Shown one piece after another: positions 598-21,558 of a stretch of DNA of 61,389 nucleotides; within the stretch, counting starts at the first letter, position 1, and each line of letters opens with the position of its first letter. The position numbers were made by a program, and so were the translations under genes. The notes beneath the pieces are model-generated. The model saw only the letters and a program-made list of their open reading frames with translations. It did no database searches and had not been told where the DNA came from. Where the stretch lies: positions 1 to 61,389 of IMG/VR virus record IMGVR_UViG_3300025132_007241; one strand, written 5' to 3'. The DNA comes from a virus.

Positions 598-602
598 TTT
601 AA

Positions 603-1503: not shown

Positions 1504-1579
1504 TCCGGGGTAGTTCAATTGGTAGAACGTCCGACTGTTAATCGGGTGGTTGTTGGTTCGAGTCCAGCTCCCGGAGCCA
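1504..1579 (+). tRNA. tRNA-Asn (anticodon GTT)
   Basis: Acceptor TCCGGGG (1504-1510) pairs with TCCCGGA (1569-1575) with one G-T pair. The D arm is GTTC/GAAC. The anticodon stem TCCGA/TCGGG encloses CTGTTAA (1535-1541), giving GTT. CCA is encoded at 1577-1579. It stands apart from the other five, after the amidinotransferase gene. Confidence 0.96.
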
Positions 1580-1598
1580 AAGACAAGAGGTTTTTATA

Positions 1599-2087: not shown

Positions 2088-2097
2088 CTCAAGTAAC

Positions 2098-2105
2098 AAT
2101 AAATA
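2098..2105 (+). promoter_or_regulatory. Possible T4-type late promoter element
   Basis: AATAAATA differs at one position from the T4 late promoter consensus TATAAATA. It lies in one of the few true intergenic gaps (54 bp), 37 bases before the phoH start. A gp55-like late sigma factor encoded at 26666-27361 makes such elements plausible. One short AT-rich match is weak support. Confidence 0.2.
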
Positions 2106-2141
2106 TTTGACACTAGTTACTTTAGAGTTAGAAAGGTCTAT

Positions 2142-7623: not shown

Positions 7624-8459
7624 TGTCGGTGCTATTCCTCGCTGATTTCTTCAGCGACCAGATCAACGGTGGGGGCGAGAACAATGATGCTGTCCTCATC
7701 GCTGATCTGCGTCAGAGGGGAATTTCAGTTGAAAAGGTTCACTGCCAAGCGGTCACGGTTGATCAACTACATGCAGCTGATACGGTTATAGTTTCAAACT
7801 TTGTTACTCTTGCATCGACGCATAGGGAATATATTACCGACAATTGTGATTACATCATTTATGAGCATGACCACAAATATGTAACAACGCGTGATCCCTC
7901 GAAGTTCGTAAACTTTATGATTCCTCCACAACATATTATCAACAAGATGTTCTATCACCGTGCACGAAAAGTGATTGTACTCAGTGAAATTTGCAAAACT
8001 GTCATGGAAAATAATTTGGGTAATACCAACGTCCACTCGATTGGTAGCAGCTTGTGGTCGAAAGAGAAATTCACATTTTTGCGTGAGTGCCCAAAGAACA
8101 AGACAAAAGGCGTAGCTGTGATCGATTCTAGCAACCCGACCAAGGGTAGGGCTGCAGCGATAGCCACTTGCGAGAAAAAGAACATAGAATTTGATCTTGT
8201 CTCATCACCTGATCAATATGAATTTCTCAAGATATTAAGCGAGTATAAATCATTGTTATTTGTCCCTCAAGTGTTAGAGACCTTTTGCCGATTAATAGCA
8301 GAAGCAAAGATGTTGGAATGCCAGGTTTACACTAACGGAAAATTAATTGGCATGATGAGCGAGCCATTTGCACAACAATCCGGACTTGAATTAATCGAAA
8401 CCCTGGAAGGTCAGGTCACTAGCGCCTTGGATTATTTTTATGAGTTGGTAAAAAAATGA
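7587..8459 (+). CDS. Glycosyltransferase-like protein (GT-B fold, divergent)
   Basis: A 290-residue protein. The N-terminal part has FSDQINGGGENND, a glycine-rich loop near residue 25. The C-terminal part has an EX7E-like motif (ETFCRLIAE) followed by AKMLECQVYTNG, as in GT4 enzymes. It is shorter than its two upstream neighbours, with a reduced N-terminal domain. The ATG at 7587 has a strong GAGGAG 5 bases upstream, so I keep it despite a 37-bp overlap. A GTG at 7623 is the alternative. It ends in an ATGA overlap with the heptose epimerase gene. Confidence 0.7.
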   Translation: MVISNGRHSDSVVSVLFLADFFSDQINGGGENNDAVLIADLRQRGISVEKVHCQAVTVDQLHAADTVIVSNFVTLASTHREYITDNCDYIIYEHDHKYVTTRDPSKFVNFMIPPQHIINKMFYHRARKVIVLSEICKTVMENNLGNTNVHSIGSSLWSKEKFTFLRECPKNKTKGVAVIDSSNPTKGRAAAIATCEKKNIEFDLVSSPDQYEFLKILSEYKSLLFVPQVLETFCRLIAEAKMLECQVYTNGKLIGMMSEPFAQQSGLELIETLEGQVTSALDYFYELVKK

Positions 8460-9316
8460 TTTTAGTGACAGGCGCCGCAGGATTTATAGGACAAAGCTTA
8501 GTCGACCATCTAGGCACCCGCGCCGTGATTTGCGCCGATCCCTCTGATTCAAATATGTTAACACCGGAAGAGGCTTTACGCCGTCTGGAGTTTACTGACG
8601 ATATCACCGTGGTATATCATATGGGCGCCATATCTTCTACTACAGAAACAAATATGTTGGCGCTCACTGAAAATAATGTTGCTTATAGTCTCAAACTTCT
8701 GTATCTTTGCCTCGATAAAGACATTCCCTTTGTTTATGCCTCTTCCGCATCGGTGTATGGCGCTGCCACTGGAACTCAGCGAGAGGACCAACCACACGCC
8801 CCCATTAACGGATACGCTATAAGCAAGTCGACCTTTGACAACTTTACGCATCAGATAATCTCACTATATCCAGACGCCAAAGTGTATGGGCTTAGGTATT
8901 TTAACGTTTATGGTCATCACGAACATCATAAGGGCAATATGGCGAGCCCTGTGCACAAATTCACGATGCAGGCAAGAGATACAGGTAAGATCCAGATTTT
9001 TGAGGGTAGCGAAAACTATCTTCGTGATTTCATTAATATTGAAGACGTAGTAAAAATTACCATTGAAGCAAGCAACCTCGCGCAAGCTGGTGTTTATAAC
9101 GTAGGAACAGGAGTCGCTCGATCGTTCCTAGATGTGGCTAAGATAATCGCTGCTGAGACGGGGGCGGAAATTGAGGAAATCCCCTTCCCAAACCATCTCA
9201 AAGGTAGATATCAGACCCACACCTGCAGCGATAACACAAAAATTGCGGACAATGGCTACACTCACCCGCGCCTCGATCTAGAGACTGGAATTAAAAACAC
9301 CCTGGCTTTGATATGA
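8456..9316 (+). CDS. hldD: ADP-L-glycero-D-manno-heptose 6-epimerase
   Basis: A 286-residue extended SDR enzyme. GAAGFIGQS (6-14) binds NADP. HMGAISSTTET (55-65) matches the HldD substrate segment. YAISK has catalytic Tyr120 and Lys124, and RYFNVYG plus HHKGNMASPVHKF and FEGSENYLRDF are HldD hallmarks, as is FPNHLKGRYQ near residue 245. HldD converts ADP-D-glycero- to ADP-L-glycero-D-manno-heptose, the last step of the LPS inner-core heptose donor pathway. It is somewhat shorter than the usual 310 residues because the loop after the first strands is trimmed. It is coupled by 4-bp overlaps to both neighbours and is followed by the heptose adenylyltransferase and kinase genes, which strongly supports the assignment. 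Confidence 0.9.
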   Translation: MILVTGAAGFIGQSLVDHLGTRAVICADPSDSNMLTPEEALRRLEFTDDITVVYHMGAISSTTETNMLALTENNVAYSLKLLYLCLDKDIPFVYASSASVYGAATGTQREDQPHAPINGYAISKSTFDNFTHQIISLYPDAKVYGLRYFNVYGHHEHHKGNMASPVHKFTMQARDTGKIQIFEGSENYLRDFINIEDVVKITIEASNLAQAGVYNVGTGVARSFLDVAKIIAAETGAEIEEIPFPNHLKGRYQTHTCSDNTKIADNGYTHPRLDLETGIKNTLALI

Positions 9317-9711
9317 CAACAGTTTTTATTAATGGCTGTTTTGATATCTTGCATCGAGGTCACCTAGAATTGTTTAAATATGGTGCCTCCCTGGGTACTA
9401 CTCTCGTCGTTGCAATCGATTCAGACGAAAAGGTCAGAGCAGCCAAAGGACCAGATCGTCCTGTTAACAGTGTAGAAGATCGAAAGTTTATGTTATCCTC
9501 ATTACGATACATCGATCAGGTCGAAGTGTTTAACACACCAGAAGAGCTTGTCGCACTAGTAAAACAAACCGCCCCTGATATTATGATTGTAGGATCAGAT
9601 TGGCAAGGTAAGCATATTGTTGGCGGAGAGCACGCCAAAAAGATTAAGTATTTTGAGAGAATAGATGGATATTCCACAACCAAAATCATTCAAAGTATTA
9701 GTGATAGGTGA
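9313..9711 (+). CDS. rfaE2: Heptose 1-phosphate adenylyltransferase (HldE C-terminal domain as a free protein)
   Basis: A 132-residue nucleotidyltransferase. NGCFDILHRGHLELF (8-21) holds the HRGH motif (14-17), KGPDRPVN (45-52) is the RfaE substrate loop, and GYSTTKII (119-126) is the C-terminal nucleotide motif. These are the signatures of the adenylyltransferase half of HldE, which makes ADP-D-glycero-D-manno-heptose from the 1-phosphate and ATP. In E. coli this domain is the C-terminal part of a bifunctional enzyme. Here it is separate and precedes the kinase gene. It overlaps hldD by 4 bp and the kinase gene by 47 bp. Confidence 0.9.
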   Translation: MTTVFINGCFDILHRGHLELFKYGASLGTTLVVAIDSDEKVRAAKGPDRPVNSVEDRKFMLSSLRYIDQVEVFNTPEELVALVKQTAPDIMIVGSDWQGKHIVGGEHAKKIKYFERIDGYSTTKIIQSISDR

Positions 9712-10435
9712 TGCCTGCACAGATCGGTATTATTATGGGGACTGCACACGGCTAAGTCCAGAGGCGCCTGTGCCCGTTTTGAAGCACTTATACACTGAAG
9801 AGCGCCTAGGCATGTGTTTGAACGTTGGAGCCAATCTAAAGGCTCTGGGCGCCTCTGTAGACGTTTTAAAGAATGACGAAATGATCTATAAGGATCGCTT
9901 TGTCGACGTCAAAACAAAACAGCATCTTTTAAGAGCGGATTTCGGTGAAAGCAAAGCAGTGATACCGATGGATACGTCCTGTCTTAATGTAAATTCATAT
10001 GACGCTGTCGTGGTATCAGATTATGATAAAGGATTCGTTAGTCGAACAGCAGCCGTTGAAATATCAACAAAATGTAACGAAGCTAAAATTCCGCTGTTTG
10101 TGGATTCCAAGAAAAAGAAATTAACTTGCTATGAACACTGTTTCATCAAAATAAACGAAAAAGAAAGAAACGAACTGCATTCATATTCTAAAACGGCAGA
10201 CCTAATTGTGACCTTGGGCGCAAAGGGGGTAGAGTGGGCAGGCACGGTGTACCCCACAACAGAATGCGAAGTGTTTGATGTGTCGGGTGCAGGCGATACT
10301 TTCCTTGCTGCGCTGGTGCATAAATATCTTGAAACCAAAGATACACCCACAGCGCTTAAATTTGCTAATGATTGTGCTAGAATAGTAGTACAAAAGTTTG
10401 GCACCTATTGCCTAAAGCCAGGAGATCTTACATAG
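9665..10435 (+). CDS. rfaE1: Heptose 7-phosphate kinase (HldE N-terminal domain as a free PfkB-family protein)
   Basis: A 256-residue PfkB/ribokinase-family kinase. VLVIGDACTDRYYYGDCTRLSPE (11-33) and APVPVLK (34-40) are close to the HldE start. FVDSKKKK sits near residue 148, and DVSGAGDTF (205-213) holds the catalytic Asp211 and the anion hole. HldE kinase phosphorylates D-glycero-D-manno-heptose 7-phosphate at O1 to the 1,7-bisphosphate. The protein is 60-70 residues shorter than the domain in E. coli, with shortened middle segments. The start is supported by GAGAG before the ATG and by the conserved N-terminus, although it overlaps the adenylyltransferase gene by 47 bp. The next gene starts immediately after its stop. 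Confidence 0.88.
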   Translation: MDIPQPKSFKVLVIGDACTDRYYYGDCTRLSPEAPVPVLKHLYTEERLGMCLNVGANLKALGASVDVLKNDEMIYKDRFVDVKTKQHLLRADFGESKAVIPMDTSCLNVNSYDAVVVSDYDKGFVSRTAAVEISTKCNEAKIPLFVDSKKKKLTCYEHCFIKINEKERNELHSYSKTADLIVTLGAKGVEWAGTVYPTTECEVFDVSGAGDTFLAALVHKYLETKDTPTALKFANDCARIVVQKFGTYCLKPGDLT

Positions 10436-10765
10436 ATGAACTATGTATTTGATATAGATGGTACAATTTGTACCACCACAGAGGGGAACTATGAGACAGC
10501 TAAACCTCTCGCTGATCGTATTGCGATCGTTAATGCTCTTTATGATGAGGGGCACACAATTATTTTCCAAACGGCTCGTGGAATGGGGCGTAGCGATAAC
10601 TCTGTTGCCTATGCAAACACTGCATTTTATGAGTTAACAAAACGGCAGTTGAACAACTGGGGAGTTAAGTATCACTCTCTATTTTTAGGAAAACCAGCAG
10701 GAGATATATACATCGATGACAAAGGAATTAAAGACAAAGACTTCTTTGCCCATGAAACACGTTGA
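10436..10765 (+). CDS. Small HAD-type phosphatase, candidate heptose bisphosphate phosphatase
   Basis: A 109-residue minimal HAD hydrolase with FDIDGTI (5-11; nucleophile Asp6, acid/base Asp8), FQTARG (42-47; Thr of motif II), LGKPAGDIYIDDK with Lys near residue 84 and the acidic pair near residue 92. It resembles small HAD proteins of capsule and LPS loci. It directly follows the heptose kinase gene with no gap, so removal of the 7-phosphate from heptose 1,7-bisphosphate (the GmhB step) is a reasonable inference. True GmhB proteins are longer (about 180-190 residues) and this one lacks their insert, so the role rests on context. Confidence 0.75.
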   Translation: MNYVFDIDGTICTTTEGNYETAKPLADRIAIVNALYDEGHTIIFQTARGMGRSDNSVAYANTAFYELTKRQLNNWGVKYHSLFLGKPAGDIYIDDKGIKDKDFFAHETR

Positions 10766-11093
10766 TAAAGGTTGGGGCTGGGAACGTTGGATTGTTAACT
10801 GTGAAGAATATTGCGGCAAACTCTTGTTTTTCAATTCTGGAAAGCGGTGTTCGTGGCACTACCATGTATTGAAGGACGAGGTATTCTATCTACAATCCGG
10901 TAAGATGATGATATACTTTTCCGAACAGGATGATATCACTAAGGCTGAGCAATTAGTTTTAAACGCCGGGGACAACTTCCATGTTTACCGCGGCTTACGT
11001 CATCAGATGGTGGCTCTGGAAGACTCGGAACTATTTGAGTTTTCGACACAACATTTTGACAGCGATAGCCATCGTGTCATAAAGGGTGATTAA
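10752..11093 (+). CDS. Cupin-domain protein
   Basis: A 113-residue single cupin. It starts KHVDKGWGWERW, then has CSWHYHVLKDEVFYLQSG (metal-binding His pair and Glu), and ends with the second cupin motif around AGDNFHVYRGLRHQMVAL. The pattern is that of mannose-6-phosphate isomerase/sugar-epimerase-type cupins in polysaccharide loci. An in-frame ATG at 10716 would add 12 residues with no similarity. It has an AGGAG, but at a long 12-base spacing. I prefer 10752, which overlaps the HAD gene by 14 bp. A sugar isomerase or epimerase role is likely, but the substrate is unknown. Confidence 0.75.
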   Translation: MKHVDKGWGWERWIVNCEEYCGKLLFFNSGKRCSWHYHVLKDEVFYLQSGKMMIYFSEQDDITKAEQLVLNAGDNFHVYRGLRHQMVALEDSELFEFSTQHFDSDSHRVIKGD

Positions 11094-11789
11094 ATGACAA
11101 CAGAAATGGACTGGTTCCTGGAGAACCTCAGGACAAAAACTCCTTTTGGCTACGCGCGGTTTAACGATGGCGAGATGATGGCAATCGACCAGATTGGATC
11201 TGTAGTTGCCCGTGGCGATCAGGTTGTAGACGAGTCTTTACACAATGCGCTCAACGAAGCCATTATTCACAAACAAGAGCGTTACTATATTGGTATCCCT
11301 TGTTCATTATGTTACCCACGCCTTGCAGCTCTTGCCCACGAAGTAGTGGGTGACTACGACTATCTAACAAGCGCCGTCGCAACAACAAACAGAAATTGGA
11401 AGCATTTTATTACGTCTTTCCCGGCTGCAATGGAAGGTCGCCGGCTCGTATGGGTGGGAGGTAATGACCAGAACCCCGATGCAATTCGTGATTTAGGAAT
11501 TACTGTAGGGAAAACGGCACTTGTCCCGCGCAAAAACAGCTGGAAATTCTATGACAAGATTCGCCAGGCGCTTCCCGAACACTTCCAACCGGGAGATGTG
11601 GTGGGCATATCACTAGGACCAACTGCGAGGATCCTTGTTAGACAATGGTTTGAGGAGTTCCCGGATCTCACATTTATCGATATGGGTAGCAACCTTGATC
11701 CATTTACGCGCAACGTGCGTCACAATTGCCACAAGGGCTGGGACGAGACTGGATTTAACCTGACTAAGCGCTGCCCGGAGTGCAACTAA
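11094..11789 (+). CDS. GT-D fold glycosyltransferase (DUF1792-like)
   Basis: A 231-residue protein starting directly after the cupin stop. GYARFNDGEMMAI near residues 18-30 carries the D-x-E (DGE) motif that marks GT-D fold glycosyltransferases of the DUF1792 family. Later segments YIGIPCSLCYP, FVGG-like VWVGGN and VPRKNSW fit that family, as does GDVVGISLGPTARILVRQW. Family members transfer glucose in protein O-glycosylation or cell-surface glycan assembly. The C-terminus has a Cys/His group (HNCHKGW, RCPEC) that may bind metal, which I do not know from the family. Acceptor and donor are unknown. Confidence 0.75.
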   Translation: MTTEMDWFLENLRTKTPFGYARFNDGEMMAIDQIGSVVARGDQVVDESLHNALNEAIIHKQERYYIGIPCSLCYPRLAALAHEVVGDYDYLTSAVATTNRNWKHFITSFPAAMEGRRLVWVGGNDQNPDAIRDLGITVGKTALVPRKNSWKFYDKIRQALPEHFQPGDVVGISLGPTARILVRQWFEEFPDLTFIDMGSNLDPFTRNVRHNCHKGWDETGFNLTKRCPECN

Positions 11790-11790
11790 C

Positions 11791-12519
11791 ATGAGAATTT
11801 ACCTTTCTACTTCGAACAAATACAATGTTCTCTGTCCTATCAATATTCATTTTTTGAATAAGTATTGGCCTGGGCAAGACATCACATTGGTCGGGTATGA
11901 AAAGGTACTCGAACTAAAAGATCTCCCGGATAATGTAACAGTCCATAGCCTCGGTAACCAAGACAACTTTGGAAAGACATGGACGAACGCCCTTATTCCA
12001 TTCTTTCGCGATATCCCGGAAGAATATTTTGCTTTAATCCTGGACGATCAGGTGTTGGCGCACCCAGTAGATCAAAGTAAAATGGATCTTCTAGAAAAGT
12101 ATTTCAAGTTTGGCAGAGCAGAAAAAGCTATGATTGGGGGAGGTGTGCAATTCTCGGACGGTAAAAGAATTGGAAATGACTTAGTTGAAATTCGCCAGGA
12201 TGTCCCGTACAGAACGTCACTACACCCGGCTATTTGGAAGAAAAGTTATTTTCTCAAGTACCTAAAACCTAATTTTACTTCATGGGATTTTGAATTAAAA
12301 AATGAAGCCCGTAATGACCAAGCCAGAATTTTAAACTTTGATTATGATTACCCCAATGAGCCCCATCCCTATTGCAATGTGGAACTCTACAATAAGGGAG
12401 AGATCACAATCAACAGTGCAGGAGAGACGATTACCAATCAACCGTCGACCCCATTCTTCAAGAAAGAAGACTTAAAATATATGTGGGACGAAATCCACAA
12501 AGAAGGAATCAAGATATGA
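11791..12519 (+). CDS. Putative glycosyltransferase (GT-A-like)
   Basis: A 242-residue protein. The sequence MRIYLSTSNKYN, followed by a YFALILDDQVL segment near residue 90, looks like the strand plus acidic (DxD-like) motif of a GT-A glycosyltransferase. The C-terminal half has many aromatic and charged residues, with an SWDFELKNEAR segment. No standard family is recognised with certainty. It starts 1 base after the previous stop and overlaps the next SDR gene by 4 bp (ATGA). Its place within the sugar operon supports a glycan role. Confidence 0.6.
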   Translation: MRIYLSTSNKYNVLCPINIHFLNKYWPGQDITLVGYEKVLELKDLPDNVTVHSLGNQDNFGKTWTNALIPFFRDIPEEYFALILDDQVLAHPVDQSKMDLLEKYFKFGRAEKAMIGGGVQFSDGKRIGNDLVEIRQDVPYRTSLHPAIWKKSYFLKYLKPNFTSWDFELKNEARNDQARILNFDYDYPNEPHPYCNVELYNKGEITINSAGETITNQPSTPFFKKEDLKYMWDEIHKEGIKI

Positions 12520-13439
12520 GAGCACTAGTATTAGGACACACAGGGTTTGTAGGATCAAACTTGATGACATACCTTATCGCACAGGGTGTCGATGTCATGG
12601 GGGTATCCCGAGAAAACTGCGATCTTCGCATTCAGGGACATTTTGAGGAATACCTTAGAGAAGCAGGAGAGGGGCTGGATGTTATTTTTAACTGCGCCGC
12701 AAATGTCGGAAGTGTTCATTACGTTACGGAATTTGCTGGCGACGTCATGTACGACAACACCCAAATGGTCTTAAACATTTATAACGCTGTTCGTGAAGTC
12801 ACCCCCTCTACGGTGATTGTCAACCCTCTGTCTAACTGTTGTTATGCTAACGGAACCCAAGTACAAGATGAAACCAAGTGGCTAGAGGGCGAAGTACATC
12901 CTTCAGTGTTTTCGTTTGGTAATTTTAAGCGGGTCCTATATTATATATCTCGTTGCTACAGTATGCAATACGGCGTAAGAAGCGTAAACCTTATGTTCCC
13001 CGGTATTTACGGTCCTGGTGATAGCACAGACCCGAACAAAGTACACGCACTTAACGGAATGATTATCCGCATGTTGGGTGCCATTGAGGCAAATGACGAG
13101 CACTTTGAAATTTGGGGTACCGGGAAGCCAATCCGCGAGTGGGCATACATTGATGACGTTTGCAAAATTATGCATATGAGCGTCGATTTAGGTGAGATGA
13201 TTGAGCCTGTTAACGTAGCTCAAGGTAAAGGATTTACTATTGCTGAAACCGGCGGGTGCATCGCCGCAGCCACTGGCTATACCGGAGAGCTTGTCTTTAA
13301 TACAGAATATCAAGACGGTGCCCCAGTGAAAATTCTAGGAATGGGCAAGTTTGCCACAGTTTTCGAAGGCTATGAATTCTCGGATCATCAAGAAGGAATT
13401 AACCATACAGTTGAATATTATAAAGGAGTACTAAACTAA
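12516..13439 (+). CDS. GDP-fucose synthase-like SDR protein with Tyr-to-Phe change in the active site
   Basis: A 307-residue extended SDR resembling GDP-L-fucose synthase (Fcl/WcaG). It has the GHTGFVGSNL nucleotide loop at residues 8-17, NCAANVGSVHY near 68-78 and NPLSNCCYANG near 108-118. The catalytic block usually reads YxxxK, but here it reads FGNFK. Aligned on the conserved QYG 15 residues later, the tyrosine is replaced by phenylalanine while the lysine is kept. MFPGIYGPGD and IREWAYIDD follow as in the family. The start at 12516 (ATGA overlap) is preferred over 12483. The loss of the tyrosine means it may catalyse only epimerisation, another reaction, or none. Confidence 0.8.
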   Translation: MRALVLGHTGFVGSNLMTYLIAQGVDVMGVSRENCDLRIQGHFEEYLREAGEGLDVIFNCAANVGSVHYVTEFAGDVMYDNTQMVLNIYNAVREVTPSTVIVNPLSNCCYANGTQVQDETKWLEGEVHPSVFSFGNFKRVLYYISRCYSMQYGVRSVNLMFPGIYGPGDSTDPNKVHALNGMIIRMLGAIEANDEHFEIWGTGKPIREWAYIDDVCKIMHMSVDLGEMIEPVNVAQGKGFTIAETGGCIAAATGYTGELVFNTEYQDGAPVKILGMGKFATVFEGYEFSDHQEGINHTVEYYKGVLN

Positions 13440-14572
13440 TGGAACAAGATTACAAGATGGAAGAACCCGTCATTCGCTGCTGGAGTGTTTTCATTCCGGA
13501 CCATGCTGGTGATGAAGTAACAAAGACTCTTAAGTCAACCTGGATTAACACAGGCAAGAAAGAAAAGGAATTCCGCTCCAAGATTTGTGAACGGTTCAAC
13601 GCCCCCTATGCTGTCGCGTGTATGACGGGCACAGCTGCTCTTAAAATTGCTCTCAAGGCGCTAGGCATCGGTCCTGGAGATGAAGTCGTTAGCACGCCCT
13701 TTACCTTTATTGCCACCAACACAGCCATCCTTGAAGTAGGGGCAACCCCGGTATTTGCGGATATCCAATACGATACTCTGAATATTGATCCCAAGAGTGT
13801 CGCCGAAAAGATTACAGATAAGACAAAAGCTATTATGTGTGTGCACTACGCGGGCAACCCCGTCGATCTAGACGAACTCCGCGAAGTTGCCGCCGCCCAC
13901 AATCTACCAATTATTGAAGATAGTGCCCACGCACAGGGCACTCGCTATAAGGGTAATCCCATTGGTTCAACTGGAGATGTGGCTACGTTTTCATTTCAGT
14001 GTGTTAAGATTGTTACCAGCGGCGACGGCGGCGTGGTTACCACAACGCGCCCAGAGGTCTATGCAAAGCTTAAAAAGCAGTCATGGTATGGCATCGACCG
14101 CGACACCAAGAAAACGAGCATCCTCGACCCGCTCCCAGCCCCACCGGATGGTCTAGGATTCAAGTCTAACATGAATGACATCACGGCCACGCTCGCATGC
14201 GTAGCTATTGACAGTTTAGACGAAGCATTAGCTATCCGGAAAGAAATGGGTGAGCGATATCGGAATGAGCTGTCCGGACTCAACAAGGTGACGTTAGTAG
14301 ACTACAAGGATCACTGGACGCCGAATTATCAGATCTTCCCGATTCATGTAGAAAACCGAGATGAGTTTGCCCAGTACATGTGGGATCGTAATATTCAGGT
14401 CAATGTTAACAATCGACGTAATGACATTTATGAGATGTTTGGTGGTCTGTGTGATTTGCCTAATCTTAAGCGTTGTGATGAAGACGTTATCTTGATCCCC
14501 CTACATGCAGACCTTACATATGCGGATCTAACGCGCGTTATTGATGCGATTAAGGAATATGATGCTTTATGA
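13439..14572 (+). CDS. DegT/DnrJ/EryC1/StrS family sugar aminotransferase
   Basis: A 377-residue PLP-dependent enzyme of normal length. CMTGTAALKIAL near residue 61 binds the cofactor phosphate, FTFIATNTAI follows, and IIEDSAHAQGTRYKG near 155-170 supplies the Asp that contacts the pyridine nitrogen. FSFQCVKIVTSGDGGVV near 183-199 holds the Schiff-base lysine. These enzymes transaminate nucleotide-linked keto-sugars to amino-sugars, using glutamate or glutamine. It would act on a 4-keto or 3-keto sugar made by one of the neighbouring SDR dehydratases, for example the RmlB-like enzyme. It shares a TAATG stop/start with the upstream SDR gene and an ATGA with the next gene. Confidence 0.9.
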   Translation: MEQDYKMEEPVIRCWSVFIPDHAGDEVTKTLKSTWINTGKKEKEFRSKICERFNAPYAVACMTGTAALKIALKALGIGPGDEVVSTPFTFIATNTAILEVGATPVFADIQYDTLNIDPKSVAEKITDKTKAIMCVHYAGNPVDLDELREVAAAHNLPIIEDSAHAQGTRYKGNPIGSTGDVATFSFQCVKIVTSGDGGVVTTTRPEVYAKLKKQSWYGIDRDTKKTSILDPLPAPPDGLGFKSNMNDITATLACVAIDSLDEALAIRKEMGERYRNELSGLNKVTLVDYKDHWTPNYQIFPIHVENRDEFAQYMWDRNIQVNVNNRRNDIYEMFGGLCDLPNLKRCDEDVILIPLHADLTYADLTRVIDAIKEYDAL

Positions 14573-15288
14573 GAGGGCTTATCGGTCATACTGGATTCGT
14601 AGGATCGAATATTCTAGAGCAGTCTAAGTTTGATAAGTGTTATAATTCCAAGAATATAGAGTCCATAGCAGGCGAAAACTTTGATGTTCTAGTCTGTGCG
14701 GGCGTAAGCAGCGTCAAATGGAGAGCGAACAAAGAACCTGAAGAAGATTTCAAGCAAATTGAGCGACTGATCAGCAGTATTAACAAGGCTACGTTCAAAA
14801 CATTAGTACTCATTTCAACGATCGCAGTGTATGATAATCCTGCAGATAGTGCATATGGTCGGCATAGATTGTATCTAGAGACCTATTTAATGAACAAATA
14901 TAAGAACGTTTATATTACTCGCTTGCCATCCTTATTCGGGAAAGGATTAAAAAAGAACGTAATCTATGATTTAATGAATGAGGATTATAGATTTGTTCCA
15001 AGTCCATGGAGTTATTTTCAATACTATTGCTTAGACAACATCTGGAAAGATATCCAAAAGCAGATTGATTTAGATATTAAGACATTAAATATTAACTCGG
15101 AAAGAGTGCCGTTTGGTAAGGTGTTGAATCTTTTTGGGCTAAACTTAGAACAATTTAGAAGAAATAAAGTAGTGCAAGAAAACATGTTGAGTGATCACGC
15201 TGAACACTGGGGACAGACGGGAGACTATCTGTATACTCAGGAAGAGACACTAGAAGAGATTAAGAAGTTTATAACACCACATGAATGA
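14569..15288 (+). CDS. SDR-like NAD(P)-binding protein, probably degenerate
   Basis: A 239-residue Rossmann-fold protein with LIGHTGFVGSNILE (4-17). The usual catalytic YxxxK is YGRHR near residue 104, so the lysine is replaced by arginine. It is also 60-80 residues shorter than typical epimerases. The gene looks markedly AT-richer than its neighbours (two 60-base lines counted at 14881 and 15061 give 32-33% G+C, against 52% for a line in the preceding gene), which suggests a separate origin. It is coupled to both neighbours. It may be a structural or regulatory SDR relative rather than an active epimerase. Confidence 0.65.
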   Translation: MRGLIGHTGFVGSNILEQSKFDKCYNSKNIESIAGENFDVLVCAGVSSVKWRANKEPEEDFKQIERLISSINKATFKTLVLISTIAVYDNPADSAYGRHRLYLETYLMNKYKNVYITRLPSLFGKGLKKNVIYDLMNEDYRFVPSPWSYFQYYCLDNIWKDIQKQIDLDIKTLNINSERVPFGKVLNLFGLNLEQFRRNKVVQENMLSDHAEHWGQTGDYLYTQEETLEEIKKFITPHE

Positions 15289-15568
15289 ATACTACGCAAA
15301 ATACTTAACGCTCCACAAGCACCCGACAAACCGGCTGCTGCATTTTGTTGGGCTTTGGGTCACAATTCTTTTTGTAGGCTGGGTAGTTGCTTCGAAGCTC
15401 TGGCTTCTTCTATTGCTAGCTCCATTTGTGGTATACCCGTTTGCTTGGTCGGGACACTACATTTTTGAAAAGAATAAACCAGCTGCATTTCATAATCCCA
15501 TTAAAGCTAAGATTGCTGATTGGATGATGTTTAGAGATATCTTACTTGGAAGGTTAAGGATATGGTAA
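15281..15568 (+). CDS. DUF962 / Mpo1-like small membrane protein
   Basis: A 95-residue protein matching the DUF962 family. LHKHPTNRLLHFVGLW sits at 11-26, two hydrophobic segments at about 22-40 and 40-56, then GHYIFEKNKPAAFHNP (58-73). The conserved histidines are all present (His12, His14, His21, His59, His71). In yeast, the family member Mpo1 is an Fe(II)-dependent dioxygenase acting in alpha-oxidation of 2-hydroxy fatty acids. Bacterial members are mostly uncharacterised. Bacterial homologues are often longer, and this short form keeps the core. It overlaps both neighbours within the sugar operon, so a role on 2-hydroxy acyl chains of lipid A or glycolipids is possible but unproven. Confidence 0.85.
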   Translation: MNEYYAKYLTLHKHPTNRLLHFVGLWVTILFVGWVVASKLWLLLLLAPFVVYPFAWSGHYIFEKNKPAAFHNPIKAKIADWMMFRDILLGRLRIW

Positions 15569-16509
15569 AGAAGAAAATATTAGTTACCGGCGGTGCCGGA
15601 TATGTTGGAACAGCATTGCTTCCAAAACTACTTGAAGCCGGTCATGAAGTTACCGTCTTCGACAATCTGATGCAGGGAGGTAATCAATTACTCTCGTTCT
15701 TTAGAAATAAGAACTTTCATTTTATTAATGGGGATGTAACCATCAAGAAGGATCTAGAGGAGGCAGTAAAGGGGATGGATGTGATTGTCCACCTCGCAGC
15801 CATTGTGGGCTTCCCCGCCTGCAAGAATAATCCTGAATTAGCCACTGCTGTCAATGTTGACGGGACGCAGAACCTGATCGATGTAACAACCCCGGATCAG
15901 GTTATTTTGTATGGCTCCACGGGCAGCAACTACGGGAAAGTAACGGACATCTGCACAGAGGAGTCCCCGCTCAACCCCTTGAGCCTCTATGGTGAGACTA
16001 AGACTAAAGCTGAGCATATGCTGATGGCTCGCGGCAACACTGTTGCGTATCGTTTTGCTACTGCCTTCGGTGTGTCGCCTCGCCTTCGGCTAGACCTTCT
16101 TATCAATGACTTTACCAACAAGTGCCTCCGAGATGGGTATCTAGTGGTTTACGAAAAGCACTTCATGCGTACGTTCATACATGTTTCAGATATGGCCAAT
16201 GCTTTCATGCTGGCAATCAATAATTTGGACAAGATGGTTAACAATGTTTATAACATTGGTGATGACTCAATGAACTATAGCAAAGAAGAGATTTGCAATA
16301 TGGTGGCTGAAAAAACGGACGCCTTCATCCACTTTGAGGAGATTGGCTCTGACGCTGACAAGCGCAACTACGTAGTGAGTTACGACAAGGTCCGCGCCCT
16401 AGGGTTTCGCACGGAGGTCACAATCCAGGACGGCATCGACGAGATTATCAAGGCTCTGAACGTTGTAGACTTTACAAATCCCTATGTCAATATCAAGCGA
16501 GGTCTGTAA
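15562..16509 (+). CDS. NAD-dependent nucleotide-sugar epimerase/dehydratase
   Basis: A 315-residue extended SDR. GGAGYVGTALL (10-20), FDNLMQGG near 33-40, VHLAAIVGFPACKNNP near 76-91 and YGETK near 150 (Tyr and Lys present) are intact. The sequence is most like a broad group of UDP- or dTDP-sugar epimerases without a firm specificity. The ribosome site GGTTAAGG precedes the start, which overlaps the DUF962 gene by 7 bp. It likely supplies a modified sugar to the glycosyltransferases in this island. Confidence 0.83.
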   Translation: MVKKKILVTGGAGYVGTALLPKLLEAGHEVTVFDNLMQGGNQLLSFFRNKNFHFINGDVTIKKDLEEAVKGMDVIVHLAAIVGFPACKNNPELATAVNVDGTQNLIDVTTPDQVILYGSTGSNYGKVTDICTEESPLNPLSLYGETKTKAEHMLMARGNTVAYRFATAFGVSPRLRLDLLINDFTNKCLRDGYLVVYEKHFMRTFIHVSDMANAFMLAINNLDKMVNNVYNIGDDSMNYSKEEICNMVAEKTDAFIHFEEIGSDADKRNYVVSYDKVRALGFRTEVTIQDGIDEIIKALNVVDFTNPYVNIKRGL

Positions 16510-17150
16510 TGTCAAAGCACAAATATAACTTCTCTCTCACTAACACTACTGCTAAAACCGATGAGCCACACCCCGAGAATCTGAAAAAAACATGGCAACA
16601 TAATAGACCAGTCGAAGGCGCTACTGCAGCTGCTGTATTCGGTGAAGGCAACGGTGACACGGAGTATGTCAACATCTTTAATGCTCATTATCCTAACTTT
16701 GAAGGCAAGGTTCTTGAAATTGGCGCCGGCACCGGTTGGTTTGCTAAACAGATTCTTACGAGTTGCCCTAATGTAGAATATACCATTTTAGACATTGAAA
16801 GGAATATTGAAGACACAATTAAGAACACGCTCTCGGATTTCCCTGATGTTTGTTATATAACCTCTGCTAACTATAAAGATGCTTTGACGGAAACATACGA
16901 CCTGTTTATAGAGACCCATTGTTTGTCGGAGACTCCTCAATATTACTATACAGACATTCTCGGTAAACTCCAGACCAAAAATTGTTTAGTGATTGATTAT
17001 GGCGGCGATCCAAATGATCCGGGTTTTAACGACACTCTCGACACATGGTTCTCTCAATTTGCACACCAGGACAAATCGATTAACCGAGCCCTCCTAGGCG
17101 GCAACAATTATCCCATCCCAGTCTATATTGGTAAATCAGACAAGGCATAA
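16509..17150 (+). CDS. SAM-dependent methyltransferase, class I
   Basis: A 213-residue protein. VLEIGAGTGWFAKQIL near residues 69-84 is the SAM-binding motif I, YTILDIERN (about 95-103) is motif II and YDLFIETHCLSE (about 133-144) is the motif IV region. It resembles sugar O-methyltransferases found in LPS and capsule loci. The N-terminal 50 residues include HPENLKKTWQ, a helical extension. TAATG couplings link it to both neighbours. The substrate is probably a sugar hydroxyl on the glycan. Confidence 0.8.
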   Translation: MSKHKYNFSLTNTTAKTDEPHPENLKKTWQHNRPVEGATAAAVFGEGNGDTEYVNIFNAHYPNFEGKVLEIGAGTGWFAKQILTSCPNVEYTILDIERNIEDTIKNTLSDFPDVCYITSANYKDALTETYDLFIETHCLSETPQYYYTDILGKLQTKNCLVIDYGGDPNDPGFNDTLDTWFSQFAHQDKSINRALLGGNNYPIPVYIGKSDKA

Positions 17151-17872
17151 TGAATCCAAATATCTCCAATCCTTTTGCGCCCTATAAAGACTCTCATGCA
17201 GGGGCAACTGCAATCTTGTGCGGCTCTGGACCCACACTTTTAGAGTTTGATGCATCGCTGGTTCCTGAAGGAGTGTTGCGATTCGGTGTAAATGATCAGA
17301 TTTTCCTTGACCTAGATCTAGATTATTGGTTTATGGGAGATTCCGTTCCGCAAGTCCCGGACAAGTTTTGGAATCGGTACAACGACTTTAACGACTACCT
17401 ACCCAAGAGACAGAAGTTTGTGCGTTTCTGTAATTGGGTCGACGATAGGGAGATTATAATTCAACCCTACGGTCGTGTGCCGCGGAATGGACAGTTACCT
17501 CTTAACCTTAAAAACGCCAAGTACTATGTATCGGACAGTGGAGGAAACCCTGATCACTGCAAGTTCAAAAAGAATATAGCAGAGGGAAATTTGACTTCTG
17601 TTGCATCAATTACTTTTGAAGTGCTCCAATTCATGTTATACTGTGGCATAAAGAAGATCTTTTTAGTGGGACAAGATTGTGATTATTCTGGTGGAACCTT
17701 TGCCAAGATTATGATAGGCAAACAACAGAGGGCGGATTACTATATCCTCAGATACTGGAAGCATGTAAAAGAGTGGATTACAGAAAATCACCCTGATGTT
17801 GAGATTTATAGCATCAACCCCGTGGCTTTAGATATCTTCCCCGAAGCCAAGATAGAGGACATTAAATGTTAG
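17150..17872 (+). CDS. DUF115/sialyltransferase-like glycan enzyme
   Basis: A 240-residue protein. AILCGSGPTLLEFDA near residues 21-35 is the GSGP nucleotide loop typical of DUF115-like and bacterial GT42-like proteins. VNDQIFLDLDLDYWFMGD (about 47-64) and KKIFLVGQDCDYSGG (about 168-182) match the rest of that fold. SVASITFEVLQFMLYCGI is a conserved helix before the QDC segment. These proteins transfer nonulosonic acids (sialic or legionaminic type) to glycans or flagellin. A CMP-sugar synthetase gene lies two genes downstream and would supply such a donor. The exact acceptor is unknown. Confidence 0.7.
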   Translation: MNPNISNPFAPYKDSHAGATAILCGSGPTLLEFDASLVPEGVLRFGVNDQIFLDLDLDYWFMGDSVPQVPDKFWNRYNDFNDYLPKRQKFVRFCNWVDDREIIIQPYGRVPRNGQLPLNLKNAKYYVSDSGGNPDHCKFKKNIAEGNLTSVASITFEVLQFMLYCGIKKIFLVGQDCDYSGGTFAKIMIGKQQRADYYILRYWKHVKEWITENHPDVEIYSINPVALDIFPEAKIEDIKC

Positions 17873-18846
17873 ACATTGAAGATTTTGAAAGAAAATATAA
17901 CGCTATCGTGAATAGCGAGCAGTTTGCCCAACTGCAAGAAACATATAACAAAGCCAAGTACGTGTTTTTCTTTGGACATGGTGGTAATATGGGCGTGGCA
18001 GAACACGCCGCTATTGATCACTCTCGCCTCACAGACAAGAATGTATTCGCCCCAGGAGGCGGAGTCATTGTGACATCAATCCAGGGTGACACCAGCTTTA
18101 ATGACTGGATCATGAACTGGCTAGATATTCGTACTCGCGGATTAGAAAAGAGCGAGTGCTTGGCTATTGGAATTTCGTGCTCCACCAACGGTATCTCCTC
18201 GGATTGCCTCTCTACTGCGCTGAACTGGGCTGCAGAAAACGGCATGCAAGCGTGTCTCTGGGCTGCGCAGCCGAAAGAAAAGGGCATCCACCCGCAAGTC
18301 AATCAGATTATCCAGCACACCAAATACTACCATACTTCGGAGATTATTTCTCTAACGATGACATATGAGTTGATTCATGGTGCCGGATTTATGTGCCCTG
18401 CAATCTCGACCAAAGCCCAGCAGCGTCGGTTTGAAAAGCTAGGGATTGAATCTGAGGTCGAAACCCACAATCAGCACGTTCCACCCGGCATGGAGACCCA
18501 ACTCAACAATTTGGCCATTGACTTCGATGGAGTTATTCATAACTTTGATAAGGGCTGGCACGATGGCACCTGCTATGGTGATCCCCTGCCCGGAGCACTG
18601 GATGCCATCCGCACACTGGCTGAGGACTGGAACATTATCGTCTTCTCTGCAAAGGTTCGCCCTGATCGACCACTAGTTGGCGGGAAAACAGGATACGAGC
18701 TGGTGGATGAATGGCTACAGGACCACGGAGTTCGTGACTTAGTCGCTGAAATTACTCATGAAAAGCCACGCGCTCAACATTATATTGACGATAAGGCTAT
18801 TGAGTTTACCAATAACTGGACTGAGATTCTGGAGCGCCTACAGTGA
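17866..18846 (+). CDS. gmhA: Sedoheptulose-7-phosphate isomerase (GmhA-like SIS domain) fused to a HAD phosphatase domain
   Basis: A 326-residue two-domain protein. Residues about 28-185 are a SIS domain of GmhA type: FFGHGGNMGVAEHAA (35-49), PGGGVIVTSIQGDTSFND (63-80), and AIGISCSTNG (100-109), where GmhA has GISTSGNS. A His (171) sits in the C-terminal helix. Residues about 215-326 are a HAD domain with LAIDFDGVIH (216-225; Asp219 and Asp221), FSAKVRPDR, and HYIDDKAIEF (305-314). GmhA isomerises sedoheptulose 7-phosphate to D-glycero-D-manno-heptose 7-phosphate. The fused HAD could remove a phosphate later in the route (GmhB-like). I know of no standard GmhA with this fusion. The overlap with the upstream gene is 7 bp. 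The next gene uses a GTG start inside its stop. Confidence 0.85.
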   Translation: MLDIEDFERKYNAIVNSEQFAQLQETYNKAKYVFFFGHGGNMGVAEHAAIDHSRLTDKNVFAPGGGVIVTSIQGDTSFNDWIMNWLDIRTRGLEKSECLAIGISCSTNGISSDCLSTALNWAAENGMQACLWAAQPKEKGIHPQVNQIIQHTKYYHTSEIISLTMTYELIHGAGFMCPAISTKAQQRRFEKLGIESEVETHNQHVPPGMETQLNNLAIDFDGVIHNFDKGWHDGTCYGDPLPGALDAIRTLAEDWNIIVFSAKVRPDRPLVGGKTGYELVDEWLQDHGVRDLVAEITHEKPRAQHYIDDKAIEFTNNWTEILERLQ

Positions 18847-19508
18847 AAAGCATTACAGCTGTTGTACCTGTACGCAAGGGATCGGTAAGAGTAAAGAATA
18901 AGAATCTTAAACCTTTTGCTGGCAAAACACTTCTACAGATTAAGGTTGAGCAGTTAAAGCAAGTAAGCCTTATTGATAACATTGTCGTAAGTTCTGATTG
19001 TGATGACATGCTAGCCCTAGCAGCGGAGCTAGGAGTTAATACCCACCGTCGCGTTGATTACTTTGCTTCATCAGAGGCAACAAACTCAGAGTTCTTTGAA
19101 AATCTGGGGCAAGCCATTGAGGGTGACTATCTCATGTATAGTCCCGTGACTTGCCCTTTGATCTCATTGGAAACATATCATGATTGCATCTCAACCTTCC
19201 AACAGGATGAGGAGATGGAAAATCTAGTAACAGTTACCGCTGTGAAGCATCACCTGTGGTTGGACAACGAACCGTTAAACTATGATGTCACTAATTCCCC
19301 CAACAGTCAGGACCTTCCTGATATCTATGCCATCACTTATGGTGTTTGTATTATTTCCCGCGACGATATGATCGCTCGCCGCAATATCGTGACCCCAAAC
19401 CCTACCTTTAAAGTACTCGATGAAATTGAGTCTGTTGACATCGACACCGAGTTTGATTTTATGGTGGCGGAGATGATCTACAAGAAAATAAATAACTTGA
19501 CATTCTGA
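18843..19508 (+). CDS. CMP-sugar synthetase (acylneuraminate cytidylyltransferase-like)
   Basis: A 221-residue GT-A-type nucleotidyltransferase with a GTG start overlapping the previous stop. VVPVRKGSVRVKNKNLKPFAGK (7-28) is the NeuA/KdsB nucleotide-binding P-loop, ending with TLLQIKVEQL. YLMYSPVTCPL near residue 97 matches the acidic/pocket region. It would activate a nonulosonic acid or Kdo-like acid sugar as a CMP-sugar. No NeuB-type synthase is present in the window, so the acid sugar would have to come from the host or from elsewhere in the phage genome. The length is close to that of single-domain NeuA. Confidence 0.82.
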   Translation: MKSITAVVPVRKGSVRVKNKNLKPFAGKTLLQIKVEQLKQVSLIDNIVVSSDCDDMLALAAELGVNTHRRVDYFASSEATNSEFFENLGQAIEGDYLMYSPVTCPLISLETYHDCISTFQQDEEMENLVTVTAVKHHLWLDNEPLNYDVTNSPNSQDLPDIYAITYGVCIISRDDMIARRNIVTPNPTFKVLDEIESVDIDTEFDFMVAEMIYKKINNLTF

Positions 19509-19543: not shown

Positions 19544-20182
19544 ATGAAACACAATCCATACCAAGTTATTACTAATTTTGAGGAGATCGTAGCAGAATAC
19601 TGCGGCTCTAAATATGCTGTTGCTGTTGATAACGCAACCAACGGTTTGTTCCTGTGCTTAAAGTACTTAGGAATTGAAGACCAAGACATTACCATCCCGG
19701 CTGTCACATTTATGTCGGTACCCTGCACCATCATTCAGACAGGAAACCGCGTCAGCTTTGATAAGAATCACCCGGCGATTATTGATGGTAAGAGACTCCG
19801 CGGACAGTATCAGCTGGCACCCTTCCCAGTTTGGGACAGTGCTCTCACATTTCATCGCGACATGTATATTCCAGGGCAGTTTATGAACCTTTCGTTTAGT
19901 GGTCCTCACAAGTTTTTAAAGTTGGGCAAAGGGGGAATGATTCTTACTGATGACAAAGAAGCGCACACATGGCTCAAGCGAGCTGCCTACTTTGGTCGCC
20001 GTCCTATGGACCATAAAGAAGAGAAATTTGATATGCTTGGGTGGAACTACTACATGCTCCCAGAGATAGCGGCACGAGGTGCTGTATTAATGTTGGGAAT
20101 AAAAGATGATAATAAAGATCTTGAAATTGAATACCAAGACCTATCTAAATATAAAGTATACACGGAGGCAAACCGCAAATGA
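19544..20182 (+). CDS. Miniature DegT-family aminotransferase-like protein
   Basis: A 212-residue protein with clear DegT features but about 160 residues shorter than the family. YCGSKYAVAVDNATNGLFLCLKYLG (residues about 19-43) matches the phosphate-binding start, ITIPAVTFMSVP follows, then VWDSALTF near 104 (Asp for pyridine contact) and SFSGPHKFLKLGKGGMI (Schiff-base lysine candidates) near 120-136. The segment between TGNRVSF and the Asp motif is much shortened and the whole C-terminal domain is missing. No remnant lies downstream: the radical SAM gene begins in an ATGA overlap, so this is not a frameshift. It may be catalytic in a minimal dimer, or act as a binding partner. Confidence 0.75.
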   Translation: MKHNPYQVITNFEEIVAEYCGSKYAVAVDNATNGLFLCLKYLGIEDQDITIPAVTFMSVPCTIIQTGNRVSFDKNHPAIIDGKRLRGQYQLAPFPVWDSALTFHRDMYIPGQFMNLSFSGPHKFLKLGKGGMILTDDKEAHTWLKRAAYFGRRPMDHKEEKFDMLGWNYYMLPEIAARGAVLMLGIKDDNKDLEIEYQDLSKYKVYTEANRK

Positions 20183-21558
20183 AGGTCGTTCTAATTCAAC
20201 CATATTACGAAAACATCTGGGAACCCATTGGTTTGGGTTTCATCTCAGCTTATCTTAAGAAGCACTACGAAGGAGAGCTGGATCTTTGTTGCTATCAGGG
20301 CAACTTTGACACTGATGAGGAGATCATCGAGGGGTGCACTGGCGCCGATGTGGTCGGGTTCTCTTGTACCTCCCCGGCTTGGCCTCATGCATTGCGGTTG
20401 GCTGAAGAGATTAAGAAAGTTAGCCCGGACACTCGCACAGTGGTCGGGGGATTCCACCCGTCTGCGCTTCCAGAGGAAAGTGTAGCCCACGATTGTATTG
20501 ATCAAGTAGTAGTCGGCGAGGGCGAAGAGGTTTTCCTTGATATTGTCAATGGCAACACAGATCCCATCGTTCAGGGGACAAAGCCTGCAATGCAGGATCT
20601 TCCTTGGCCAGATCGCTCAATTATTAAGAACTATCGCACCGTCGACCTTTGTGAGTCGATGAACGGTACTCGAACTGCCTCATTCCAGTGCAACCGGGTT
20701 TGCCCTGTGGCGTGCACCTTTTGCGCAGAACGCATTATTACTGGTAAGCATAATCGCCGCGATAATCCAATTCGTTCTCGGGACGTTAGTGAGTTGTGCG
20801 ACGAGATTGAGCATGTTATTGAAGAGCTGGATCTCACATATTTTAAGTTTGTAGATGCTACTTTTGATATCTCAGCAGACTTTGTTATTAGATTTTGCAA
20901 GGAGAAGATTAAGCGTGGTATTACCACAGAGTGGGAATGCCTGGTGCATGCTAGTTTTGCAACTGAAGAAATGTTTGAATGGCTCAAGAAAGCTCAGTGT
21001 AACCGAGTTGCCATTGGCTGCGAAAGCGGCTCCGACCGCATTTTGAAGCGCGTCGGTAAGGGACTAAAAGTTGATACAATCCGTAAAGTCTTTGCATGGG
21101 GACGAAAGCATGATGTCGAGCGCCGAGGTTTCTTCCTGCTGGGAATGCCTGAGGAAACCCGCGAGGACTGGTTGCTCACAGAACAGTTGATTGATGAAAT
21201 CGAACCCGATGTGGTTGGCTTCACAATTCTCTGCCCATATCCAGGTACCCATTACTATGATCCGCAGCTGCATAAAAATGTAGACTGGGAGAAGGCTGAC
21301 GAGTATTCTAATGATTTCTGGGCTACACCGCACTTTACTAACATTGAACTCAAAGCCAAGCAGGCATACTTTAAGACTAAGTATGACCTCTTACTCAATG
21401 AACGTCAGTTCGGCGAAGGATCCACATCGGCTGGTGCAACAGATATGCGTGAGCTAGAAAAAGAGTCGTTCTCGACACCAATTGGCACCAACGTCAATAA
21501 CGCACCAGACATTGCTGGTGTTGTCCAGCTTGATACTAGTAAAAGAACGGAAGCCTAA
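20179..21558 (+). CDS. B12-binding-domain radical SAM protein
   Basis: A 459-residue protein of the BchE-like group. Residues 1-130 form a cobalamin-binding-type Rossmann domain (WEPIGLGFISAYLK, DVVGFSCTSP, TVVGGFHPSALPEE, VVGEGEEVF), without the classic DxHxxG. Residues about 165-370 are the radical SAM barrel with the CxxxCxxC cluster motif at Cys175, Cys179 and Cys182. GCESGSDRILKRVGKG near 277-292 and GFFLLGMPEET are typical of the subgroup. The last 55 residues are a serine/threonine-rich tail. Such enzymes methylate unactivated carbons or remodel ring structures. The stop overlaps the ferredoxin start (TAATG), suggesting a dedicated electron donor. The substrate may be a nucleotide sugar or a lipid, inferred from context. 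Confidence 0.9.
   Translation: MKVVLIQPYYENIWEPIGLGFISAYLKKHYEGELDLCCYQGNFDTDEEIIEGCTGADVVGFSCTSPAWPHALRLAEEIKKVSPDTRTVVGGFHPSALPEESVAHDCIDQVVVGEGEEVFLDIVNGNTDPIVQGTKPAMQDLPWPDRSIIKNYRTVDLCESMNGTRTASFQCNRVCPVACTFCAERIITGKHNRRDNPIRSRDVSELCDEIEHVIEELDLTYFKFVDATFDISADFVIRFCKEKIKRGITTEWECLVHASFATEEMFEWLKKAQCNRVAIGCESGSDRILKRVGKGLKVDTIRKVFAWGRKHDVERRGFFLLGMPEETREDWLLTEQLIDEIEPDVVGFTILCPYPGTHYYDPQLHKNVDWEKADEYSNDFWATPHFTNIELKAKQAYFKTKYDLLLNERQFGEGSTSAGATDMRELEKESFSTPIGTNVNNAPDIAGVVQLDTSKRTEA

What the first reader, a model, noticed from the sequence alone, without database searches (positions are those of the whole stretch)
8456..18846. Apparent complete phage-borne ADP-heptose pathway
The window encodes a SIS isomerase (GmhA, 17866-18846), a PfkB kinase (rfaE1, 9665-10435), a small HAD phosphatase (10436-10765, and a second HAD domain fused to GmhA), the HxGH adenylyltransferase (rfaE2, 9313-9711) and the epimerase HldD (8456-9316). 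Together these cover every step from sedoheptulose 7-phosphate to ADP-L-glycero-D-manno-heptose. The four genes from HldD to the HAD are contiguous. ADP-heptose is the LPS inner-core donor and an innate-immune ligand in animals. Whether other phages carry the full set is not known to me.
Basis: partly seen in the sequence, partly recalled or inferred. Interest (0 to 1): 0.85.

Follow-up and report, generated by a model that had tools for sequence, protein, structure and literature searches.

The report
Phage heptose module with cupin isomerase

Summary
The genes are real and at the stated coordinates. HldD, the adenylyltransferase and the heptose kinase are each best matched by their ADP-heptose families, though all score below the curated cut-offs. 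The small HAD is a capsule-type (EcbF/BcbF) phosphatase, not GmhB. The SIS-HAD gene has a GmhA-like fold but matches no GmhA profile, and elsewhere it travels with a CMP-sugar synthetase, not with the heptose genes.

In 42 non-redundant viral loci found by the kinase alone, 42 have the adenylyltransferase, 42 the cupin within 6 kb, 27 the HAD, 27 HldD and 1 an SIS gene. No SIS or GmhA domain passes cut-off in 50 such records, including nine complete cyanophages. DPANN archaea carry cupin-HldD-kinase-GmhB-adenylyltransferase operons without GmhA; six of nine assemblies have none anywhere. The cupin is fused to the adenylyltransferase or to HldD in some loci. Its closest solved relatives include D-lyxose/mannose isomerases, whose five active-site residues it keeps.

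Best reading: a five-gene ADP-heptose pathway whose isomerase is the cupin, a non-homologous stand-in for GmhA. Phage carriage itself is known: cyanophage "LPS genes" (2010). The cupin role is inferred and untested.

The parts
8456..9316 (+). HldD-type ADP-glyceromanno-heptose 6-epimerase (286 aa)
   Evidence: TIGR02197 8e-81, 271.6 bits (cut-off 274.6); E. coli HldD 1eq2 1.2e-54; Y120, K124 and K159 kept
9313..9711 (+). Heptose-1-phosphate adenylyltransferase (HldE C-domain type, HxGH)
   Evidence: TIGR02199 1.6e-32, below cut-off; the TagD-type cytidylyltransferase family follows at 6e-20; PHROG 7878
9665..10435 (+). Short PfkB kinase, HldE N-domain type (heptose-7-phosphate kinase)
   Evidence: TIGR02198 2.2e-48, below cut-off; PDB 4e84 heptose kinase 7e-19; SPEAPVPV and GAGD motifs conserved in relatives
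10436..10765 (+). Small HAD phosphatase, EcbF/BcbF capsule type; candidate heptose-1,7-bisphosphate 7-phosphatase
   Evidence: TIGR01689 3e-11, no GmhB match; HAD motifs D6/D8, T46, K86, D94-D95; PHROG 1238 is labelled 'phosphoheptose isomerase', apparently wrongly
10716..11093 (+). Cupin metalloprotein; proposed sedoheptulose-7-phosphate isomerase (start may be 10752)
   Evidence: Invariant H48, H50, K53, E55, H96 across 87-90 relatives; D-lyxose isomerases among top fold and profile hits; accompanies the kinase in 42 of 42 loci
17866..18846 (+). SIS-HAD fusion with a GmhA-like fold; probably belongs to a neighbouring CMP-sugar pathway
   Evidence: Foldseek GmhA 5by2 2.6e-7; no NCBIfam or Pfam SIS match in the window; CMP synthetase within 1 kb in 30 of 55 loci, kinase plus adenylyltransferase in 3 of 55
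18843..19508 (+). CMP-sugar synthetase (PseF/KdsB-like), recurrent partner of the SIS-HAD gene
   Evidence: TIGR03584 PseF 4.9e-21, below cut-off; adjacency

Best explanation
Window 8456-11093 is a five-gene phage module that makes ADP-activated manno-heptose. The cupin (10716-11093) converts sedoheptulose 7-phosphate to D-glycero-D-manno-heptose 7-phosphate by metal-dependent aldose-ketose isomerisation. The PfkB kinase adds the 1-phosphate, the small HAD removes the 7-phosphate, the HxGH enzyme adds AMP, and HldD epimerises C6. The ADP-heptose then feeds the glycosyltransferases of the surrounding glycan island, most likely to alter the host surface during infection. Shown: gene content, order, family matches, conservation of catalytic residues and co-occurrence. 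Inferred: every enzymatic activity, above all the cupin's, and the final use.
For: (1) Kinase-anchored viral loci with complete flanks: 42 of 42 non-redundant loci have the adenylyltransferase, 41 the cupin within 3.5 kb and 42 within 6 kb, against 27 HAD, 27 HldD and 1 SIS. Control: 7 of 55 SIS-HAD loci hold the cupin anywhere in the fetched locus (up to about 21 kb). (2) PF13580 and PF01380 above cut-off in 0 of 50 records, of which 49 carry the cupin and/or the kinase, including nine complete cyanophages; the full SIS-HAD in only 2 of those 49. (3) DPANN-type operons cupin-HldD-kinase-GmhB-adenylyltransferase, in two of which a GT9-type gene lies upstream; GmhA absent from six of nine of those assemblies; in two of the other three the GmhA-like gene sits in a separate GHMP-kinase/GmhB/transaldolase cluster. 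(4) Fusions cupin-adenylyltransferase (L056, L062) and cupin-HldD (L232). (5) Profile hits to D-lyxose isomerases 2y0o 1.2e-7 and 7nzo 2.2e-6; Foldseek ranks 2, 3, 5-7 and 9. (6) The lyxose isomerase residues H75, H77, K86, E88, H143 (PMC8378251) correspond to H48, H50, K53, E55, H96, all invariant.
Against: Cupins are catalytically versatile: quercetin dioxygenase scores as well as lyxose isomerase in the profile search, and CapF is the first fold hit. The cupin also occurs without the kinase: 14 of 24 selected cupin records gave no kinase match and a fifteenth only a weak one, and in soil Deltaproteobacteria/Binatia and two phage loci it sits beside a GDP-mannose-4,6-dehydratase-like gene. 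It may therefore be a mannose-6-phosphate isomerase or a broader sugar-phosphate isomerase. The host may supply GmhA. Most records are fragments or incomplete MAGs. No protein has been assayed.
Confidence: 0.58

Rival explanations
1. One reading: the SIS-HAD protein at 17866-18846 is the GmhA (and perhaps GmhB) of the pathway.
For: The nearest solved folds of its SIS half are GmhA (5by2 2.6e-7, TM 0.65-0.75 by target length); profile hit to N. gonorrhoeae GmhA 9e-6; His47 and an acidic residue (Asp51) sit where GmhA has zinc ligands H61 and E65 (PMC5387315).
Against: No NCBIfam SIS or GmhA hit in any member scanned and only sub-cut-off Pfam SIS hits in two relatives. The GmhA zinc ligands Q175 and H183 appear as Glu159 and Tyr167 (helix register inferred). 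Kinase and adenylyltransferase lie in only 3 of 55 SIS-HAD loci, whereas the CMP synthetase is within 1 kb in 30 of 55. Absent from all nine cyanophages that carry the module.
Confidence: 0.15
2. The module starts from D-manno-heptose 7-phosphate made by the host's own GmhA; the cupin does something else, such as epimerising or editing the nucleotide sugar or acting as mannose-6-phosphate isomerase.
For: The cupin also occurs without the kinase and beside GDP-mannose-4,6-dehydratase-like genes. Host GmhA could not be checked here.
Against: Six of nine DPANN-type assemblies with the operon lack GmhA altogether. The cupin is more constant in the kinase loci than HldD or the HAD, and its metal site and Lys-x-Glu motif are those of ketol isomerases rather than of metal-free RmlC-type epimerases.
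Confidence: 0.22
3. The genes are passive cargo ('stuffer DNA' that fills the capsid) without function.
For: Raised for P-SSM2, S-SM2 and S-SSM7 by Sullivan et al. 2010 (PMC3037559).
Against: Catalytic residues stay invariant at 30-60% protein identity over many contigs, genes overlap tightly, and lineages recombine the same gene set in different orders.
Confidence: 0.05

Closest known systems
E. coli ADP-L-glycero-D-manno-heptose pathway (GmhA, HldE, GmhB, HldD)
   Same: Kinase, adenylyltransferase and epimerase families and the order of chemical steps.
   Different: HldE is split into two genes, the kinase is about 60 aa shorter, an EcbF-type HAD stands in for GmhB, and a cupin stands in for GmhA.
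Cyanophage 'LPS gene' cluster T4-GC 304, 305, 307, 308 (P-SSM2, S-SM2, S-SSM7; Sullivan et al. 2010)
   Same: The same gene families, often in the same order (T4-GC 304-308), near phoH and tRNAs in P-SSM2.
   Different: There not assigned to heptose; T4-GC 306 is now labelled 'phosphoheptose isomerase' and 307 'cysteine dioxygenase', both of which look wrong. In the window HldD comes first and on the same strand.
D-lyxose/D-mannose isomerase cupins (Thermofilum 7nzo, B. subtilis 2y0o)
   Same: Cupin fold, HxH...KxE...H site, YCxK motif (2y0o), aldose-ketose chemistry with the same C2 stereochemistry.
   Different: Shorter (about 120 aa), 20-22% identity, below the Pfam Lyx_isomer cut-off; a phosphorylated C7 substrate is predicted.
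GmhA (SIS family)
   Same: Same proposed reaction as the cupin; same fold as the SIS half of the 17866-18846 protein.
   Different: Unrelated fold to the cupin; the window's SIS-HAD protein lacks the family scores and part of the zinc site.

Membership tests
HldD (TIGR02197) | Score above curated cut-off | tested here: not met
   271.6 against 274.6 bits, just below; best family by far
HldD (TIGR02197) | Catalytic Tyr/Lys plus the Lys of HKGxMAS | tested here: met
   Y120, K124, K159 invariant in phage relatives
HldE kinase domain (TIGR02198) | Score above curated cut-off | tested here: not met
   165 against 345 bits; protein about 60 aa shorter
HldE kinase domain (TIGR02198) | SPEAPVPV substrate motif and GAGD catalytic motif | tested here: met
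HldE adenylyltransferase domain (TIGR02199) | Best family match, HxGH motif, score above cut-off | tested here: inconclusive
   Best match and HxGH present, but 112 against 181.5 bits, with the TagD family the next distinct one
GmhB | GmhB profile match and Cys/His zinc knuckle | tested here: not met
   No GmhB hit; P0004 has a single Cys; best is EcbF/BcbF at 43 of 162 bits
GmhA (TIGR00441/PF13580), for 17866-18846 | Profile match above cut-off | tested here: not met
   None in the window at E 1 (PF13580), no SIS or GmhA family in NCBIfam
GmhA (TIGR00441/PF13580), for 17866-18846 | Zinc ligands His61, Glu65, Gln175, His183 | tested here: inconclusive
   His47 kept, Glu to Asp51; the other two read as Glu159 and Tyr167 but lie outside the profile alignment
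GmhA (TIGR00441/PF13580), for 17866-18846 | GmhA fold | tested here: met
   Foldseek 2.6e-7, model pLDDT 84
D-lyxose isomerase cupins (PF07385), for 10716-11093 | Profile match above cut-off | tested here: not met
   14.7 against 20.8 bits
D-lyxose isomerase cupins (PF07385), for 10716-11093 | Metal ligands HxH, E, H and the stabilising Lys | tested here: met
   H48, H50, K53, E55, H96 invariant in 87-90 sequences (residues from PMC8378251)
Sedoheptulose-7-phosphate isomerase activity | Conversion of sedoheptulose 7-phosphate to manno-heptose 7-phosphate | not testable with these tools
   Needs purified protein

The most novel reading that the evidence does not exclude
The cupin is a second, non-homologous class of sedoheptulose-7-phosphate isomerase, spread among marine and freshwater phages and DPANN archaea, so that these phages encode all five steps to ADP-heptose without GmhA, and some archaea, not known to make LPS, make ADP-heptose.
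Probability: 0.52. Interest if true: 0.75.

Novelty: new variant of a known kind. Interest (0 to 1): 0.62.

Why it matters
It gives a concrete, cheap test of what the long-noted 'LPS genes' of cyanophages do, proposes a new enzyme for the committed step of heptose biosynthesis, points to wrong annotations (a HAD called isomerase, a cupin called cysteine dioxygenase), and suggests that reduced archaea make an activated heptose, which as far as I know is treated as a Gram-negative speciality.

Tried and rejected
SIS-HAD as pathway GmhA: tested by profiles, structure and neighbourhood; fold met, family and context not met. GmhB assignment of the HAD: rejected by profile and by lack of the zinc knuckle. 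SIS-HAD as an arabinose-5-phosphate isomerase of a CMP-Kdo route: suggested by the adjacent CMP synthetase, but KdsD is only rank 48 in Foldseek and no Kdo synthase was seen among the annotated neighbours, so left open. Near-identity DNA search in phages found nothing. The Sullivan 2005 P-SSM2 paper was not held under the id tried. Full-text searches found no paper combining cupin with phosphoheptose isomerase.
Full report
Setting. The window is a 61,389-base virus record of a tailed myovirus: tRNAs, a PhoH-like gene, then a glycan-synthesis island (about 5-26 kb), then baseplate and tail genes. Its baseplate wedge protein is 28-31% identical to a Microcystis phage and to Flavobacterium phages and only weakly similar to marine cyanophages. 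No phage record matches the island at DNA level.

What the five claimed genes are. HldD (8456-9316) is the firmest: TIGR02197 8e-81, three bits under the curated cut-off, E. coli HldD as best solved relative, catalytic Tyr/Lys and the HKGxMAS lysine kept. The adenylyltransferase (9313-9711) is best matched by the HldE C-domain but below cut-off, with the TagD family next. The kinase (9665-10435) is best matched by the HldE N-domain, is about 60 residues short, and keeps SPEAPVPV and GAGDT; all phage relatives aligned are similarly short. The HAD (10436-10765) has a full HAD active site but belongs with EcbF/BcbF capsule phosphatases, not GmhB. The SIS-HAD ORF (17866-18846) is real, but no NCBIfam or Pfam SIS family recognises it.

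A missed fifth gene. Directly after the HAD, and overlapping it, lies a cupin (10716-11093; an internal ATG at 10752 matches the start of most relatives). It is 61-64% identical to cyanophage proteins, more than the kinase (44-48%), the HAD (55-57%) or HldD (41-44%).

The module elsewhere. P-SSM2, S-CAM1, S-CAM3, S-SSM7, Sf-FS3, Sf-CH8, S-T4, S-SM2 and P-TIM68 carry adenylyltransferase, kinase, HAD and cupin, seven of the nine also HldD. I took 42 non-redundant viral loci found with the kinase alone and with complete flanks: 42 have the adenylyltransferase, 41 the cupin within 3.5 kb and all 42 within 6 kb, 27 the HAD, 27 HldD, 1 an SIS gene. As a control, only 7 of 55 SIS-HAD loci hold the cupin. 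In two loci cupin and adenylyltransferase are one ORF. Searching 50 whole virus records, all but one (L008, the SIS-HAD query record) carrying the cupin and/or the kinase, including nine complete cyanophages, found no SIS domain above cut-off; the full SIS-HAD protein is in only two of those 49.

Cellular operons. A scan of bacterial and archaeal genomes found the cupin in 77 loci. In nine of them, nearly all Woesearchaeota or Nanoarchaeota, it opens an operon cupin - HldD-like SDR - HldE kinase - GmhB - adenylyltransferase; a heptosyltransferase-like GT9 gene lies upstream in the two read in full. In one the cupin and the SDR form one ORF. Four of the five steps have a recognised enzyme there and the only unassigned gene is the cupin. 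Six of the nine assemblies have no stand-alone GmhA anywhere; in two of the other three the GmhA-like gene sits in a GHMP kinase/GmhB/transaldolase cluster of the GDP-heptose type. These are MAGs, so absence is weak evidence one by one.

Why an isomerase. The cupin model is confident (pLDDT 96). D-lyxose isomerases of Thermofilum and B. subtilis are among its top structural neighbours (ranks 2, 3, 5-7 and 9) and among its top profile matches (1.2e-7, 2.2e-6); L-ribose isomerase follows. These enzymes interconvert ketoses and 2-epimeric aldoses (lyxose/xylulose, mannose/fructose), the same change as sedoheptulose 7-phosphate to manno-heptose 7-phosphate. In the Thermofilum enzyme H75, H77, E88 and H143 bind manganese, E88 takes the proton and K86 stabilises the intermediate (PMC8378251). 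The cupin has H48, H50, K53, E55 and H96 in the same HxH...KxE...H arrangement, invariant across 87-90 sequences. Quercetin dioxygenase, which scores equally, has His at the Lys position (alignment), and CapF heads the fold list, so the fold alone does not decide it.

The SIS-HAD gene. Its SIS half folds like GmhA (5by2, 2.6e-7). One zinc ligand is kept, one is Glu to Asp, and the other two appear to be Glu and Tyr, with the helix register inferred (ligands from PMC5387315). A CMP-sugar synthetase lies within 1 kb in 30 of 55 loci and somewhere in the locus in 47 of 55; kinase plus adenylyltransferase are in 3 of 55. I place it in a neighbouring CMP-sugar route.

Limits. The cupin also occurs in phage clusters without a kinase match (14 of 24 selected records, a fifteenth with only a weak match) and next to GDP-mannose-4,6-dehydratase-like genes in soil Deltaproteobacteria/Binatia, which would fit a mannose-6-phosphate isomerase. 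Its substrate may therefore differ between contexts. A host GmhA remains possible for the phages.

What is known. Sullivan et al. 2010 (PMC3037559) noted that T4-GC 304, 305, 307 and 308 co-occur in three cyanophages with three other genes, called them LPS genes, and left open whether they are functional or stuffer DNA; the word heptose does not occur in that text. HldE-type viral genes are listed in AMG surveys (PMC10653327). No paper found joins a cupin to phosphoheptose isomerisation. Phage carriage is therefore known; the complete pathway with a cupin first step is the new proposal.

Noticed in passing
NC_006883 (L003) 8725-9069 and 9050-9406; same in L002, L004, L172-L177; PHROG 1238: The small HAD is labelled 'phosphoheptose isomerase' and the cupin 'cysteine dioxygenase' in public phage records; both labels look wrong.
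   Followed up: yes
17866-19508: SIS-HAD plus CMP-sugar synthetase is a recurrent pair in marine phages, a possible separate CMP-sugar pathway without a recognised synthase.
   Followed up: partly
L340 2635-3778, L341 512-2814: Woesearchaeota-type genomes with a GHMP kinase - GmhA - GmhB - transaldolase cluster (GDP-heptose type) besides the cupin operon.
   Followed up: partly
L191, L197, L208, L216: Soil Deltaproteobacteria/Binatia genomes place the cupin next to a GDP-mannose-4,6-dehydratase-like gene.
   Followed up: partly
1599-2087: A second HxGH-type nucleotidyltransferase between tRNA-Asn and the PhoH-like gene.
   Followed up: no
20179-21875: A B12-type radical SAM protein followed by a ferredoxin inside the glycan island.
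   Followed up: no
1-3464: The glycan island lies next to tRNAs and a PhoH-like gene, the same insertion hotspot described for P-SSM2 (PMC3037559).
   Followed up: partly
L174 3978-5186, L175 4847-5992: S-SM2 and P-TIM68 have a transketolase-like gene close to the heptose kinase, a possible sedoheptulose 7-phosphate source.
   Followed up: no
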